Below are positions 28,412-34,187 of a DNA stretch of 64,000 nt, in pieces; positions within the stretch are counted from its first letter, which is position 1, and each line of letters starts with the position of its first letter. Both the position numbers and the translations under genes were made by a program. Source of the DNA: an uncultured Trueperaceae bacterium. Lineage in GTDB: Bacteria; Deinococcota; Deinococci; Deinococcales; Trueperaceae. Under the pieces are notes generated by a model that was given only the letters and a program-made list of their open reading frames with translations, had not been told where the DNA came from and made no database searches. The stretch is taken from the NCBI GenBank assembly GCA_937873495.1, contig CALMXZ010000002.1:1-64000 (forward strand). Reading direction: 5' to 3'.

Positions 28412-28614
28412 CGGTCTGCGGATCGCGGCGCCCCTGAAGCGGGTGCCGCGCTTACGAAACGAAAGCACGGCTCCGCTACATCGAACTCACCGAGGCGCCA
28501 CTGCGCCCGGCTGGGCGGACCGTTCCCGCGGAAGACGAAGCCCGACCCACCTCCAACGCGAGGCAGGCGGTCGGCGGGCGCCAGGAGCGCCCGCCCGAAG
28601 GCCAGGAGGATGCC
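28412..28614 (+). promoter_or_regulatory. long 5' leader of the lys operon with a hairpin next to the ribosome site
   Basis: About 200 bases between the predicted start of transcription and the lysW ATG. A perfect 9-bp hairpin, GGCGGGCGC / GCGCCCGCC with a 5-base loop (28573-28595), ends 8 bases before the ribosome site AGGAGG. No long T-run follows, so it looks more like a translational control or ribosome-access element than an intrinsic attenuator. No lysine- or arginine-rich leader peptide, T-box or lysine riboswitch core was recognised. Lysine-responsive leader control is known for lysine genes in Thermus, so regulation here is plausible but unproved. Confidence 0.4.
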
Positions 28615-28779
28615 ATGCAGCTGCTGGATACCCCGTACGGACGCCTCGAAGTAGACCTCGGCTCGCTCATGCTCGGCGAGCTCCTCGTGACGGACGAAGG
28701 TGCGGAGCTCGAGGTGGTGGCGCTCGATCCGCTGCGCTTCGAGCTGGCGCCGGAGGAAGCCGAGGACTGGGGCGAGTGA
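28615..28779 (+). CDS. lysW: amino-group carrier protein LysW, without zinc-ligand cysteines
   Basis: LysW carries alpha-aminoadipate on its C-terminal glutamate through lysine synthesis, shielding the amino group. This 54-residue protein has the exact family size, the conserved C-terminal half ([18 protein letters not shown]) and the essential end EDWGE, with Glu54 as attachment point. ATG is 6 bases after AGGAGG. Oddly, it has no cysteine at all. The zinc-binding CxxC pairs expected near residues 5-8 and 25-28 read DTPY and VTDE. The fold must be stabilised without zinc. The stop overlaps lysX (GTGA). Confidence 0.93.
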
Positions 28780-29735
28780 GCCCGCTCCCCTCGCCGGCCG
28801 CGGGCGACGAGGTGGCCGGGCCGCACGGAACGGCGTCCGTGGCTGCTGCCACCGCGCTTGGGCGTGGCGGCGCTACCCGCCAGGCCGTAGCTACCGGCAT
28901 CGCCATCGTCTACGACCGGCTGCGCGAGGAGGAGCGCCTGCTCTTCGAAGCCTTCGAGCGCCTGAGCGTCCTCTTCACCGCCGTTTACGCCCCCTCGCTG
29001 GCGCTGGAGTTGGGCGCCGGCCCTCAGCCCGCCGTCGTCCTGGAGCGCTGCGTGTCGCAGTGGCGCGGCCTGAGCCTCGCGCACGCCTACGAGGCGGCCG
29101 GGAGCACCGTGATCAACCGCCCCGACGTGATACGGACGTGCGGCGACAAGCTCGCTACCAGCGCCGCCCTCGTGCGCCAGGGCGTGCCGACGCCCCGCAC
29201 GAGCGTCGCGGTCGACGCCGACGCGGCGCTGGCCGAGGCCGAGCGCCTCGGCTACCCCGTGGTCATCAAGCCCCTCGTGGGGAGCTGGGGACGGCTCGTG
29301 GCGCGGGCCGAGAGCCCGGCGGCGCTCGAAGCGCTGATCGAGTACAAGGAGGTGCTCGGCGGCCCCGAGCACAAGGTGCACTACCTGCAGGAGTACGTGG
29401 AGAAGCCCGGCCGTGACATCCGGGCGTTCGTGGTGGGCGACGAGGTCATCTGCGCCATCTACCGCTCCTCTGAGCACTGGATCACCAACACCGCTCGGGG
29501 CGGCAGGGCGAGCGACTGCCCGCTGACCGACGAGCTCGTCGAGCGCTGCCTTGGCGCGGCGCGCGCCGTAGGCGGCGGCATCCTCGCCATCGACCTGGTG
29601 GAGTCGAGCCGCGGCCTGCTCGTCGTGGAGGTCAACCACACCATGGAGTTCCGCAACTCCATCACCACGACCGGCGTCGACATCCCCGGTCGGATCGCCG
29701 GGTACGCCGCCCGGCAGCTGGAACTCTCGGCGTGA
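28776..29735 (+). CDS. lysX: LysW--alpha-aminoadipate ligase
   Basis: LysX is an ATP-grasp ligase that joins alpha-aminoadipate to the C-terminal glutamate of LysW. It shows the family opening [15 protein letters not shown], the ATP-grasp blocks [14 protein letters not shown] and [18 protein letters not shown], and the metal and ATP site [15 protein letters not shown], followed by [16 protein letters not shown] at 28776 overlaps the lysW stop and gives 319 residues, about 40 more than usual. The extra N-terminus is Ala/Gly-rich and may not be translated if a later GTG is used. No second lysX/argX-like gene is seen here. Confidence 0.9.
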
Positions 29736-29820
29736 ACCCCGTGGAGCGCGCGGTGGTCTCGCGCCCGGGCGTGGCGTGCGGGCGCGCCGTGGCGGCGCGA
29801 CACCGCCGGGGACGTGCGGC

Positions 29821-30948
29821 TTGAAGCCGGTGCGGGTCGGCATCCTAGGAGCGTCCGGCTACGCCGGCGGCGAGTTCCTCAGGCTGGCGCTCGGGCACCC
29901 GGGCCTTGAGGTCGGCCAGGTGACTAGTAGGGAGTACGCGGGCCAACCGGTTCACATCGTCCACCCCAACCTCCGTGGCGTCACCGGCTTGCGCTTCTGC
30001 CGACCGGAGGAGCTCGAGCCCGTCGACGTGCTCGTGAGCGCGCTGCCTCACGGCGGGCTCGCCGAGCGGGTGGACGACTACCTGCCGCTGGCGCGGCGCG
30101 CGCTCATCGACCTCTCCGATGACTTCCGCCTGCGGAGCGCCGGGGCATACGGCGCCTTCCACAGCCGGCCGCACCCGCGCCCCGACCTGCTCGGCACGTT
30201 CATCTACGGCAACCCGGAGCTGCACCGCGCGGAGCTCGTCGACGCCGCCTCGGTACCGGCCGCGGTGGGTGCCGCGGCCCGGGCTGACGGGCTGAGCGAC
30301 CTCATCGAAGGCGCCGTACCGGGCGGTCCGGTCAGGATCGCGGGTGCGGGCTGCATCGCCACGGCCACGATCCTCGCGCTGCACCCCCTCGTGGTCGCCG
30401 GCGTCCTGAACGTGGAGCGCGACGTGATCGCGGACGCCAAGATCGGCAGCAGCGCGGCCGGGAAGGACGTCTCCTTGGCCTCGCACCACCCCGAGCGGTC
30501 GGGCGCCGTGCGGACCTACGCCCCGACCGGGCACCGGCACCAGGCCGAGATCGCCCAGGAGCTCGCGGGCGGTCCGACCGTGCACCTGAGCGCCACGGCC
30601 GTGGAGCGGGTGCGGGGCGTGCTCGTCGCCGCCCACGCGTTCGTGCGCGAGGGGGTGGGGGAGCCGGAGGTGCTCGAGGCGTTCAGGCGCGCGTACGACG
30701 CGGAGCCGTTCGTCCGCCTCGTGCGGGCGCGCCGCGGCGTGCACCGCGTACCGGACCCGCGGATCCTCGACGGGACCAACTACTGCGACGTCGGCTTCGC
30801 GTTCGACGAGCTCACGGGCAGGGTCGTGGCGCTGGCGGCGCTCGACAACCTCGTGAAGGGCACGGCCGGGCACGCCGTGCAGGCTCTCAACCTCGCCCTC
30901 GGCTTCCCGGAGGCCACGGGCCTCGGCTTCACGGGGCTGCACCCGTGA
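29821..30948 (+). CDS. lysY: [LysW]-aminoadipate semialdehyde-forming reductase (ArgC family)
   Basis: LysY reduces LysW-aminoadipyl phosphate to the semialdehyde with NADPH and belongs to the ArgC family. The 375-residue protein has the Rossmann start VRVGILGASGYAGGEFLRLAL, the conserved SALPHG and LIDLSDDFRL, and the active-site cysteine in AGAGCIATAT. HNxx-type SAAGKDVSLASHH and LDNLVKGTAGHAVQALN follow. TTG at 29821 is preferred because it gives the Thermus-like N-terminus (Met-Lys, then the Rossmann strand) and has GGGGA upstream. GTG at 29776 would add 15 residues. ArgC itself is the alternative; operon context decides. Confidence 0.88.
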   Translation: MKPVRVGILGASGYAGGEFLRLALGHPGLEVGQVTSREYAGQPVHIVHPNLRGVTGLRFCRPEELEPVDVLVSALPHGGLAERVDDYLPLARRALIDLSDDFRLRSAGAYGAFHSRPHPRPDLLGTFIYGNPELHRAELVDAASVPAAVGAAARADGLSDLIEGAVPGGPVRIAGAGCIATATILALHPLVVAGVLNVERDVIADAKIGSSAAGKDVSLASHHPERSGAVRTYAPTGHRHQAEIAQELAGGPTVHLSATAVERVRGVLVAAHAFVREGVGEPEVLEAFRRAYDAEPFVRLVRARRGVHRVPDPRILDGTNYCDVGFAFDELTGRVVALAALDNLVKGTAGHAVQALNLALGFPEATGLGFTGLHP

Positions 30949-31757
30949 GCGCGCCCGTGGTGGTGAAGGTGGGCGGGTCGGAGGGCATCGACCTGGGCGC
31001 CGTATGCGACGACGTCGCCGCCATGTGGCAGGGCGGAAGGCGCGTCGTGCTCGTGCACGGCGGCAGCGCCGAGACGAACCGCGTCTCTGCCAAGCTCGGC
31101 GTGCCGCCCCGCTTCGTGACGAGCCCGAGCGGGCATCAGAGCCGCTTCACCGATCGGGCGACCCTGGAGGTCTTCGAGATGGTCTACTGCGGCAAGGTCA
31201 ACAAGGGCCTCGTCGAGGGCCTGCAGGGGCGCGGCGTGAACGCCGTCGGCCTCTCGGGGCTGGACGGCCGGCTCCTCGAGGGCCGCCTCAAGAGCACCGT
31301 CCGGTCCGTCGAGGACGGCCGCGTGCTCGTGCTGCACGGCGACCATACGGGTACGGTCGAGAAGGTCAACGTCGCCCTGCTCGAGCTGCTCCTCGGCAAC
31401 GGCTACCTGCCCGTGCTCACGCCACCCGCCGTCAGCTTCGAGGGGGTCGCGATGAACGTGGACGGTGACCGCGCGGCGGCGGCCGTGGCTGTCGCGCTCG
31501 GGGCCGAGGCGCTCGTGCTTCTCTCCAACGTGCCCGGCCTGCTGCGAGAGTTCCCGGACGAGGCCACGCTGGTTGACCGCGTCGACGCCGCCGCACCGGA
31601 GGCGGCCATGGAGCTGGCGCAGGGGCGGATGAAGAAGAAGGTCATGGGCGCCGTGGCCGCCGTGCAGGGTGGCGTCGGCAGGGTCGTGCTGGGAGATGCG
31701 CGCGTCGGCGAGCCCGTCAGCCGGGCCTTGCGCGGACAAGGAACGGTGGTGGCGTGA
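30945..31757 (+). CDS. lysZ: [LysW]-aminoadipate kinase (ArgB family)
   Basis: LysZ phosphorylates the side-chain carboxylate of LysW-bound aminoadipate. The 270-residue amino acid kinase shows VVVKVGGSEGIDL at the start, the substrate loop VLVHGGSAETNRVSAKLG, and SRFTDRATLEVFEMVYCGKVNKGLV. Near the ATP site are NVDGDRAAAAVAVAL and the lysines of GRMKKKVMGA. It differs from classical ArgB in the same way as Thermus LysZ (residues after VHGG, and the CGKVNK block). GTG overlaps the lysY stop, and the end overlaps lysJ, so the three are tightly coupled. Confidence 0.9.
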   Translation: MSAPVVVKVGGSEGIDLGAVCDDVAAMWQGGRRVVLVHGGSAETNRVSAKLGVPPRFVTSPSGHQSRFTDRATLEVFEMVYCGKVNKGLVEGLQGRGVNAVGLSGLDGRLLEGRLKSTVRSVEDGRVLVLHGDHTGTVEKVNVALLELLLGNGYLPVLTPPAVSFEGVAMNVDGDRAAAAVAVALGAEALVLLSNVPGLLREFPDEATLVDRVDAAAPEAAMELAQGRMKKKVMGAVAAVQGGVGRVVLGDARVGEPVSRALRGQGTVVA

Positions 31758-33004
31758 GCGGGGAGACGAGCCGGCCGCATGGCGGACGGTCGGGCCCGGG
31801 CGCGGCCGAGGCCGGGAGCCAACCCTTGAGCGTCGGACCGGCGACGGCCGCGCTCCTGGAGCGGGAGGAGCGCGTCGGCTCCACGCTCTACCGACCCGAG
31901 GTCGCGTTCGTGCGCGGATCCAGCGCCTACCTGTACGACGCCGACGACCGCGAGTACCTCGACTTCATGGCCGGCATCGGGGTGGCCAGCCTCGGCCACG
32001 CCAACCCGCGCCTGGCGGACGCGCTCAAGCGCCAGGCCGACCGCCTCGTCGTGTGCCCGCAGAGCCAGGGCAACGACGTGCGCGCCGAGTTCCTCGAGCG
32101 CCTCACCGCGTTGGCCGGCGCGCCGCTGACGCGCGCCTTCCTGAGCAACTCCGGCAGCGAGGCCAACGAGGCCGCCGTGAAGTGGGCGCGCGCCGCCACG
32201 GGGCGCCGCAAGGTCGTCGCCGCCAAGCGCGGCTTCGCCGGCCGCACCCTCGGCGCCCTCTCGCTCACGTGGGAGGCCTCCTACCGCCAGCCGTTCGAGC
32301 CGCTGCCGACGACGGCGGAGTTCGTTGCGTTCGGCGACGTGCAAGCCCTGGAGGCCGCCATCGACGCGGACACCGCCGCCTTCGTCGTCGAGCCGATCCA
32401 GGGCGAGGGTGGCATCCACGTCGCCCCGCCGGGCTACCTGGAACAGGCGCGCGAGCTCACGAGCGCGCGCGGCGCCCTGCTCGTTCTGGACGAGGTGCAG
32501 TGCGGCTCCGGCCGCACCGGTACGTTCCTGGCCGCGCAAGCGCTGAACGTGACGCCCGACGTCGTGACGCTGGCCAAGGGCCTCGCCGGCGGCGTGCCCA
32601 TCGGCGCGACGCTCATGACCGAGGTGGTCGCGAGCGCCATGCCGCGTGGCGGCCACGGCACGACCTTCGGTGGCAACCCCCTCGCATGCGCCGCCGGGTT
32701 GGCCGTGCTGGACGAGCTCGAGCACGGTGGCCTCCTGGCGAACGTCAGGGAGCTGGGGGAGAGGCTCGCGAGCGGCTTGAGCGCCATCGGAAGCCCGCGC
32801 GTGCGGGACGTGCGCGGGCGTGGGCTGATGGTGGGCCTCGAGCTGCGGGAGCGGGTCGGCCCCGTGATCAAGGGCCTGCGCGAGCGCGGCCTGCTCACCG
32901 TGGCGGCCGGCGCGACCGTCATCCGGTTCCTGCCGCCGCTCGTCGTCAGCGCGCGCGAGGTCGACCGCGCCGTCGAGATCGTCGCGGCGGAGCTCGGAGC
33001 GTGA
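31754..33004 (+). CDS. lysJ: [LysW]-aminoadipate semialdehyde / ornithine aminotransferase
   Basis: LysJ is a PLP aminotransferase that turns LysW-bound aminoadipate semialdehyde into LysW-lysine using glutamate. The 416-residue class III enzyme has LDFMAGIGVASLGHANP, FLSNSGSEANEAAVKWAR (phosphate binding), VVEPIQGEGGIHV, LVLDEVQCGSGRTG and the PLP lysine Lys275 in TLAKGLAGG. A polar N-terminal extension of about 25 residues precedes the core. GTG overlaps the lysZ stop. Members of this family can also serve arginine synthesis, so dual use is possible. Confidence 0.91.
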   Translation: MSGETSRPHGGRSGPGAAEAGSQPLSVGPATAALLEREERVGSTLYRPEVAFVRGSSAYLYDADDREYLDFMAGIGVASLGHANPRLADALKRQADRLVVCPQSQGNDVRAEFLERLTALAGAPLTRAFLSNSGSEANEAAVKWARAATGRRKVVAAKRGFAGRTLGALSLTWEASYRQPFEPLPTTAEFVAFGDVQALEAAIDADTAAFVVEPIQGEGGIHVAPPGYLEQARELTSARGALLVLDEVQCGSGRTGTFLAAQALNVTPDVVTLAKGLAGGVPIGATLMTEVVASAMPRGGHGTTFGGNPLACAAGLAVLDELEHGGLLANVRELGERLASGLSAIGSPRVRDVRGRGLMVGLELRERVGPVIKGLRERGLLTVAAGATVIRFLPPLVVSAREVDRAVEIVAAELGA

Positions 33005-33041
33005 ACGAGGTCGCACGACGCACCGCGGCGGAACCTGCGGC

Positions 33042-34187
33042 ATGGCCTCGGGAAGCATGAGTTCGGGAGCCCCGCGCCCAGAGACCGAGGTCGCCGGGCC
33101 TCCAGCCACTGCGAGCTCCGGGCTGAGCGACGAGCAAGCCGTCGAGCTGGTCAGGCGGTCCGTGGTCACGGCGAGCCTCTCGGGCGGCGAACGGCCGCTC
33201 GCCGAGTACCTCGTCGGCGCCGTGGCCGGCAGCGCCTCGGAGGCGTTCGTGGACGAGGCCGGCAACGCCGTGGCCGTTTGGGGCGCGGGGCCGCGTCGCG
33301 TGACCTTCCTCGGCCACCTCGACACGGTGGCGGGCGAGATACCAGTGCGCGTGGAGGACGGCGTGCTGCACGGCAGGGGTTCGGTGGACGCGAAGGGCAG
33401 CCTGTGCGCGGCGCTCGCGGCCGCCACGCGCGCGCCGAGCACGGTGTGGGACCGCCTCACCTTCACGTTCATCGGGGCGGTAGAAGAGGAGGCGCCGAGC
33501 AGCAAGGGGGCCTGGCACGCCATGGCGGCGTACCCGCGCCCCGACCTCCTCGTCGTGGGCGAGCCGAGCGGTTGGGAGCGCTACACGCTCGGCTACAAGG
33601 GGAGGCTGGGCGTCAAGCTCACGGCTCGGTGCGCCAACGCCCACTCCGCTCGCGAAGACGCGAGCGCGGCGGAACTCGTAGTGGACGCCTACACGCGGCT
33701 GCGGGAGTGGGTCGGCCAGGACAACGAGGGCGTGGCAGGCCTGTTCGAACGCCTGCAGTTGACGCTGCTCGGCCTCACCTCGGGGGAGGACGGCCTGGAG
33801 GCGTGGTGCGAGGCGCGCGCGAGCCTGCGCGTGCCCCCGCGGTGGACGTGCGCCGGCCTACGCGCCGCAGTGGCGGAGCTCCTGCCGGGTGTGGAGCTGG
33901 AGTTCACGGAGGGCTTGGATGCTCACCGCGCTGACGGCCGGACCGAGCTGGCCAGGGCCTTCCGCGTGGCGGTGCGTTCCCAGGGCGGCAGCCCGGTGCC
34001 GTCGCTGAAGACGGGCACGTCGGACATGAACGTCGTGGCGCCGCATTGGCCCGTTCCGATGCTCGCGTACGGCCCCGGCGACTCCAACCTCGATCACACG
34101 CCGGATGAGCGACTCGACCTCGCCGAGTACCTGAGGGCCGTGCGCGTGTTCGAGCGGGCATTCGCGGAGTTGGCGGGCGTCGGTTGA
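33042..34187 (+). CDS. lysK: [LysW]-lysine hydrolase (M20 metallopeptidase)
   Basis: LysK releases free lysine (or ornithine) from the carrier LysW by zinc-dependent hydrolysis. The 381-residue M20-family protein has the metal-site motifs FLGHLDTVAG, GRGSVDAKGS, the catalytic EEE in IGAVEEEAPSS, and VVGEPSGWERYTLGYKGRLG. The dimerisation lid fills the middle, and the C-terminal metal motif region GTSDMNVVAPHW follows. The first 28 residues are low-complexity. Another in-frame ATG at 33057 is possible. It is the last gene of the lys operon, 37 bases after lysJ. Confidence 0.88.
   Translation: MASGSMSSGAPRPETEVAGPPATASSGLSDEQAVELVRRSVVTASLSGGERPLAEYLVGAVAGSASEAFVDEAGNAVAVWGAGPRRVTFLGHLDTVAGEIPVRVEDGVLHGRGSVDAKGSLCAALAAATRAPSTVWDRLTFTFIGAVEEEAPSSKGAWHAMAAYPRPDLLVVGEPSGWERYTLGYKGRLGVKLTARCANAHSAREDASAAELVVDAYTRLREWVGQDNEGVAGLFERLQLTLLGLTSGEDGLEAWCEARASLRVPPRWTCAGLRAAVAELLPGVELEFTEGLDAHRADGRTELARAFRVAVRSQGGSPVPSLKTGTSDMNVVAPHWPVPMLAYGPGDSNLDHTPDERLDLAEYLRAVRVFERAFAELAGVG

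What the first reader, a model, noticed from the sequence alone, without database searches (positions are those of the whole stretch)
28615..28779. LysW carrier protein with no cysteines
LysW proteins of the Thermus-type lysine pathway are small zinc-ribbon proteins with two CxxC pairs. This one keeps the length (54 residues), the C-terminal half and the functional end EDWGE, yet all four cysteine positions are replaced (DTPY and VTDE instead of CxxC). The gene is intact, has a good ribosome site and heads a complete lysX-Y-Z-J-K operon, so it is unlikely to be dead. It implies a metal-free carrier fold. Family zinc content is established knowledge; the claim of a working metal-free form is inference.
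Basis: partly seen in the sequence, partly recalled or inferred. Interest (0 to 1): 0.78.

Follow-up and report, generated by a model that had tools for sequence, protein, structure and literature searches.

The report
Zinc-free LysW amino-group carrier protein
A tiny carrier protein that normally needs a zinc atom to hold its shape has lost all its zinc-binding cysteines in a whole family of bacteria related to Thermus, and it appears to keep its fold and its job without the metal.

Summary
In detail: 28615-28779 encodes a 54-residue LysW with no Cys and no His, over the TIGR01206 cut-off, and it is the only lysW in the genome. It is not decay or an assembly error. All 27 genomes of one derived group in the family (including the complete Truepera radiovictrix genome) share it, with fixed replacements: T, G, T/S and a one-residue deletion at the four Cys positions. 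dN/dS is well below 1. Five relatives in the same family keep four Cys. A second, different Cys-free LysW (NPESG/DDETG, 57 aa) occurs in seven genomes elsewhere in the class, beside ordinary LysX. AlphaFold models of both types match solved LysW structures first.

Best reading: zinc was a replaceable structural staple, while the acidic globular surface and the EDWGE tail are what the enzymes use. In the genomes checked, Cys-free LysW occurs only where ribosomal protein bL31 has also lost zinc ligands, so this looks like zinc-ribbon erosion of the kind known for C-minus ribosomal proteins.

One correction: the operon is only the back half of the lysine pathway. The window's genus lacks a recognisable homocitrate synthase, has dapB and an ArgJ arginine route, so what the carrier makes there is open.

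The parts
28604..28609 (+). ribosome binding site AGGAGG, 5 nt before the lysW start
   Evidence: sequence
28615..28779 (+). lysW: Cys-free (type I) amino-group carrier protein, 54 aa
28630..28641 (+). TPYG, replaces the first zinc knuckle (CPEC); T and G fixed at the two Cys columns in 27/27 type I sequences
28690..28701 (+). TDEG, replaces the second zinc knuckle (CEDC) with one residue fewer; T/S at the third Cys column and a gap at the fourth in 27/27
28762..28776 (+). C-terminal EDWGE; the last Glu is the attachment residue in characterised LysW/ArgW
   Evidence: invariant in all aligned LysW rows; function from PMC10433800
28812..29735 (+). lysX, carrier ligase (start codon uncertain, 28812 or 28839); homology begins at 28899
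   Evidence: TIGR02144 LysX 347.8 bits
29280..29294 (+). GSWGR motif of LysX, reported to recognise EDWGE
   Evidence: PMC10433800
29634..29663 (+). LysX segment [10 protein letters not shown], nearly the same as in Thermus LysX (NHTMEFKNSV)
29776..30948 (+). lysY, argC-like reductase (start uncertain)
   Evidence: TIGR01850 argC family 314.2 bits
30945..31757 (+). lysZ, [LysW]-aminoadipate kinase
   Evidence: NF010659 431 bits (cut-off 223)
31754..33004 (+). lysJ, class-III aminotransferase
   Evidence: NF042418 447.9 bits (below its cut-off of 700); TIGR00707 argD 415.7 (cut-off 410)
33042..34187 (+). lysK, [LysW]-lysine hydrolase
   Evidence: NF003367 404.8 bits (cut-off 363)

Best explanation
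This is a functional LysW that has dispensed with its structural zinc. The two CxxC knuckles of the ancestral zinc ribbon are replaced by TPxG and (T/S)D(E/D)G, most likely tight beta-turns (the second knuckle is one residue shorter), and the small beta-sheet is held by its hydrophobic core. LysX still recognises the EDWGE tail and attaches the substrate amino group to the terminal Glu, and LysZ, LysY, LysJ and LysK still read the conserved acidic globular surface, so the carrier cycle goes on without metal. The change probably happened once in the Trueperaceae-like family, in lineages that also lost zinc ligands of ribosomal protein bL31. A second Cys-free LysW arose separately in a Deinococcales lineage and spread into some Thermaceae. 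Shown here: sequence, distribution, conservation, selection, single copy, co-occurrence with ligand-poor bL31. Predicted: fold. Inferred: absence of metal, beta-turns, unchanged carrier chemistry, the driving force (lower zinc need or lower temperature).
For: No Cys and no His, so no classical Zn site. No second lysW in the genome. 27/27 type I sequences share T, G, T/S and a deletion at the four Cys columns, plus new fixed residues such as D at column 19; they include the single-contig genome G108, which is T. radiovictrix by its exact length of 3,260,398 bp. dN/dS is 0.09-0.24 within the window's genus, and pN is well below pS in the former zinc half too. Five relatives in the same family keep Cys4. 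AlphaFold2 model: mean pLDDT 90.2, pTM 0.70; its best seven PDB hits are all LysW chains. The type II model matches T. thermophilus LysW (5eio_C) at 0.7 A over 46 columns. LysX has GSWGR in every genome compared and no column cleanly separating type I from Cys4 partners. Cys-free type II lysW sits beside native Thermaceae LysX (one clade rejected, p-AU 4.7e-5), which suggests the two forms are interchangeable. Zn ligands of bL31 are lost in every Cys-free-LysW genome whose bL31 was read, while bL36 keeps its zinc ribbon. Type I lysW lies in lysS-T-U-W-X-Y clusters in G108, G109, G084 and G098.
Against: No metal or activity measurement exists. AlphaFold does not model zinc, its input alignment held Cys4 rows, and Foldseek scores also use sequence; the type I match is loose (rmsd 2.0 to 6.3 A to the Thermus chains, best E 1.6e-3). 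In the window's own genus the AAA-making front end is missing and dapB is present, so lysine need may not explain why the gene is kept there. Three relatives (G090, G075, G080) have no lysW or lysX, though they are draft assemblies.
Confidence: 0.82

Rival explanations
1. Relic: lysW and its operon have lost their function in this genus (lysine moved to the DAP route), and the cysteines went because nothing needs the fold.
For: No homocitrate synthase over the TIGR02146 cut-off in 6/6 genomes of the genus; dapB in 5/6; argF-argC-argJ present in G000; three related genomes lack lysW and lysX.
Against: Cys loss is older than the loss of lysS: T. radiovictrix, G109, G084 and G098 have Cys-free LysW and the lysS-T-U genes. 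The replacements are fixed and the gene is under purifying selection. All five downstream genes are intact.
Confidence: 0.08
2. Repurposed carrier: in the window's genus the Cys-free LysW pathway no longer makes lysine but another amino acid (ornithine from glutamate, or a non-protein diamino acid as in Streptomyces carrier-protein pathways), with Cys loss incidental. This concerns the product and is compatible with a metal-free carrier.
For: Front end missing, dapB present, short W-X-Y-Z-J-K cluster in most type I genera, operon kept and under selection. LysW-like carriers in Streptomyces biosynthetic clusters are a precedent for other products (products from general knowledge).
Against: The LysX segment NHTMEFRNS is as in lysine-making relatives. 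Arginine already has the ArgJ cycle. The Streptomyces carriers read keep four Cys, so repurposing does not by itself remove them.
Confidence: 0.35
3. The metal site persists in another form, with Asp/Glu (or a partner protein) taking the place of Cys.
For: The protein is rich in Asp and Glu, some newly fixed.
Against: No Cys or His in 20 of 27 type I and 7 of 7 type II sequences; the two types replace Cys with different, mostly non-coordinating residues; an all-carboxylate structural Zn site in a 54-residue ribbon would be unusual (general knowledge).
Confidence: 0.04
4. Sequencing or assembly error, or wrong frame or start.
For: None found.
Against: The same residues in 27 genomes, among them single-contig genomes G108, G084 and G093.
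Confidence: 0.005

Closest known systems
LysW of Thermus thermophilus (TIGR01206; PDB 3WWL, 3WWN, 5EIO)
   Same: Length, GEL, ELEVV..(D/E)PLR, APEE.EDWGE, acidic charge, W-X order, top structural match
   Different: T. thermophilus LysW binds Zn through four Cys; here all four are gone, with a one-residue deletion in the second knuckle
Type II Cys-free LysW of Deinococcales MAGs and four Thermaceae (G006-008, G023, G024, G028, G034)
   Same: No Cys, same tail, adjacent native LysX
   Different: 57 aa, knuckle lengths kept (NPE[ST]G, DDETG), separate origin; scores 101 bits to TIGR01206 against 55 for type I.
ArgW/LysW of haloarchaea, Thermococcus and Sulfolobus
   Same: Carrier with C-terminal EDWGE used by LysX/ArgX
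   Different: Keep three or four Zn-binding Cys (PMC10433800)
Zinc and non-zinc (C+/C-) ribosomal proteins L31, L36, S4, S14 and others
   Same: Same evolutionary event: zinc ribbon whose ligands are lost in some lineages while function is kept; Deinococcus has C- L31 and Thermus C+ L31 (PMC3087516), in line with what was read here
   Different: LysW is a metabolic carrier, not a ribosomal protein, and here there is no Cys-containing paralogue to switch to

Membership tests
LysW (TIGR01206 equivalog) | score over the curated cut-off | tested here: met
   55.0 bits against 53.2, 53.5 in the genome search
LysW (TIGR01206 equivalog) | C-terminal EDWGE with terminal Glu | tested here: met
LysW (TIGR01206 equivalog) | gene next to lysX and the carrier-dependent enzymes | tested here: met
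LysW zinc-ribbon form | four (or three) zinc-binding Cys in two knuckles | tested here: not met
   0 Cys, 0 His. So it is a LysW but not a zinc-ribbon LysW
LysW | LysW beta fold | tested here: inconclusive
   prediction only: pLDDT 90, best seven PDB hits are LysW, but E-values are weak and the score uses sequence too
LysW | substrate attachment by LysX and turnover by LysZ-Y-J-K | not testable with these tools
   needs biochemistry
AAA lysine pathway (Thermus type) | homocitrate synthase and homoaconitase LysT/LysU for AAA synthesis | tested here: not met
   window's genus: none over the TIGR02146 cut-off in 6/6 genomes, candidates are 2-isopropylmalate and citramalate synthase, no LysT/U near lysW (not searched genome-wide). 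Met in type I relatives G108, G109, G084, G098
ArgW-type arginine pathway | carrier route is the only ornithine route (no acetyl cycle) | tested here: not met
   argF-argC-argJ on G000 contig C11

The most novel reading that the evidence does not exclude
In the window's genus and other short-cluster Trueperaceae, a zinc-free carrier protein runs an orphan LysW pathway uncoupled from aminoadipate synthesis and makes something other than lysine or arginine; the metal-free carrier evolved first in lysine-making ancestors and was then redeployed.
Probability: 0.25. Interest if true: 0.75.

Novelty: new variant of a known kind. Interest (0 to 1): 0.52.

Why it matters
LysW is described as a zinc-binding carrier, and zinc ligands are kept in the archaeal, Thermus and Streptomyces members seen here. 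At least two separate losses of all ligands, one of them beside an unchanged partner ligase, suggest that zinc is a structural staple only. That gives a natural experiment for asking which LysW features the enzymes read, a metal-free scaffold for carrier-protein engineering, and a non-ribosomal case of zinc-ribbon erosion nested within loss of zinc ligands in bL31. The missing front end of the pathway in this genus raises a new question about what such carriers make.

Tried and rejected
Second lysW in the genome: none. Assembly error: rejected (27 genomes). Partner adaptation in LysX: no diagnostic column, GSWGR everywhere. General zinc-ribbon loss: rejected, since bL36 keeps its ligands, while bL31 does not. 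Type I as several independent losses: LysX gives p-AU 0.281 for one clade, so one loss is not rejected, and in the AspRS tree well-supported branches force only one change; the most parsimonious trees themselves need three changes, so one loss is preferred because the four-column replacement is identical, not because the trees show it. A first AspRS tree used wrong frames for nine rows and was discarded. Arginine role: weakened by argF-argC-argJ. Deinococcus LysW itself: I recognised no genome of that genus among the genomes searched; a Deinococcus plasmid LysW found instead has four Cys. Plasmid search for type I: Streptomyces and Deinococcus carriers, all Cys4 in those translated. Viral contigs: nothing. 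Literature: no held paper found that mentions Cys-free LysW; most structural LysW papers are not in the library, so this absence is weak.

Full report
Observation. The window encodes at 28615-28779 a 54-residue protein without Cys or His that scores over the curated lysW cut-off (55.0 against 53.2 bits) and over the Pfam Zn_ribbon_LysW cut-off. A strong ribosome site lies 5 nt upstream. lysX, lysY, lysZ, lysJ and lysK follow. The genome holds no second lysW by sequence or by HMM.

Distribution. A search of the 111 genomes of the class found lysW in 101. I read the sequences of all 32 lysW genes found in the window's family and of more than 20 elsewhere; the remaining genes were not read for Cys. 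In the family, 27 are Cys-free of one kind (type I) and five (G074, G095, G096, G097, G099) have four Cys; the other seven genomes show no lysW and are fragmented drafts. G108 is T. radiovictrix: its single contig has exactly the published length, 3,260,398 bp (PMC3072082). Among the other families, Thermus-, Oceanithermus-, Marinithermus- and most Meiothermus-like genomes read have four Cys, but seven genomes carry a second Cys-free kind (type II): G006-G008, matching contigs titled Deinococcales MAGs, and four Thermaceae, G023, G024, G028 and G034. Organism names other than G108 are my recognition from genome sizes and grouping and were not confirmed.

Anatomy. Column by column, type I has T 27/27, G 27/27, T 16 or S 11, and a gap 27/27 where Cys4 proteins have Cys; type II has N, T or S, D, T at the same columns without length change. 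So the two types replace the ligands differently. Both keep GE(L/I), E-(L/F)-E-V, P at column 46, AP and EDWGE. The excess of acidic over basic residues is 12 to 18 in Cys-free proteins and about the same in Cys4 ones.

Selection. Pairwise dN/dS in the window's genus is 0.09 to 0.24, and 0.08 to 0.54 in the other type I genera tested. In the window's genus pN in the N-terminal half that once held the zinc is also well below pS. The small length of the gene makes single values rough.

Fold. AlphaFold2 gives the window protein a five-stranded model with pLDDT 90.2 and pTM 0.70. The first seven PDB hits are all LysW chains, best E 1.6e-3, rmsd 2.0 A to 5eio_C. The type II model (pLDDT 84.0) superposes on 5eio_C at 0.7 A over 46 columns. 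Foldseek uses sequence as well as shape, and the type I alignment held three Cys4 rows, so this is support and not proof.

History. On LysX, one clade for type I is not rejected (p-AU 0.281), while one clade for type II is rejected (4.7e-5), also for the four Thermaceae alone (0.0013). On AspRS, strongly supported branches force only one change for type I and two for type II. The Thermaceae type II proteins share MAK, EFEV and PP(R/K)L with the Deinococcales ones, where Cys4 members of the same family have PL(R/K)L. The simplest reading is one loss for type I, one for type II, and transfer of the type II lysW gene alone into some Thermaceae, next to native LysX. That would mean Cys4 and Cys-free carriers can replace each other with the same ligase (inference). 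LysX shows no column that cleanly separates type I from Cys4 partners, and GSWGR is present in every row.

Zinc context. bL36 keeps its zinc ligands in all 30 genomes read. bL31 has lost at least two of its four ligand Cys in every type I and type II genome read, keeps four Cys in Thermus-, Marinithermus- and Oceanithermus-like genomes and in G095 and G099, and is also reduced in several Cys4-LysW genomes (G074, G096, G097, G001, G003, G004 and Meiothermus-like G025, G026, G031, G033). So, in the genomes read, Cys-free LysW occurs only on a background of ligand-poor bL31, not the reverse. A published table gives the same L31 and L36 pattern for Deinococcus and Thermus and names zinc economy or lower temperature as possible causes (PMC3087516). 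These genomes are related, so this is a nested pattern and not a statistical test.

Pathway context. In G108, G109, G084 and G098 the type I lysW lies in a lysS-T-U-W-X-Y cluster, with LysZ-J-K read as well in all but G109. The survey of Nishida and Nishiyama reports dihydrodipicolinate reductase in no organism of its set other than D. proteolyticus, so not in T. radiovictrix (PMC3356886); there the carrier is probably the only lysine route (inference). In the window's genus the picture differs: no protein reaches the homocitrate synthase cut-off in six genomes (best 284.6 of 413.55; the hits in G000 are 2-isopropylmalate synthase, citramalate synthase and one unclear relative), dapB is present in five of six (over its cut-off in four), and G000 has argF-argC-argJ. 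No LysS, LysT or LysU lies in the stretch held around lysW (10-36 kb) in 18 further short-cluster genomes or in the window. LysX keeps NHTMEFRNS. Genome G090 of the same genus, and G075 and G080, lack lysW and lysX and have a single ArgC-family protein. The operon may therefore be dispensable for lysine in these lineages and make something else, or depend on aminoadipate from elsewhere. I could not settle this.

Verdict. A real, conserved, zinc-ligand-free variant of LysW, most likely a working metal-free carrier. It is a new variant of a known kind; no held paper was found that describes it, but most structural LysW papers are outside the library, and the high TIGR01206 score of type II (101 bits) suggests that Cys-free sequences were already within that family model (inference).

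Noticed in passing
G000 whole genome; window 28615-34187: The window's genus has no recognisable homocitrate synthase, has dapB, and G000 has argF-argC-argJ, yet lysW-X-Y-Z-J-K is kept: the product of this operon is unknown.
   Followed up: partly
L204-L233, L264-L283: Ribosomal protein bL31 has lost zinc ligands in every genome with Cys-free LysW that was read, but keeps them in Thermus-like, Marinithermus-like and two Cys4-LysW relatives; bL36 keeps its zinc ribbon.
   Followed up: partly
L310, L312, L313, L334 against L316-L333: Two forms of the cluster in the family: long (lysS-T-U-W-X-Y-Z-J-K) and short (W-X-Y-Z-J-K).
   Followed up: partly
G103-G107 (L110, L104, L112, L103, L134): LysX of genus g15 is very divergent and has NHG instead of NHT in the conserved NHTMEF segment, which might mean another substrate.
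   Followed up: no
L138 (G032:C24), around 1309-1480: A second LysW-like protein with four Cys but without the EDWGE tail, in a Meiothermus-like genome; possibly an unrelated small zinc ribbon.
   Followed up: no
L304:15635-16912: G000 has a third 2-isopropylmalate-synthase-like enzyme beside peptide ABC transporter genes, over no curated cut-off among the matches listed and not seen at full length in its close relatives by the same search.
   Followed up: no
L139 (Deinococcus sp. NW-56 plasmid): A lysS-to-lysK cluster with a Cys4 LysW on a plasmid, very divergent from the rest of the class.
   Followed up: no
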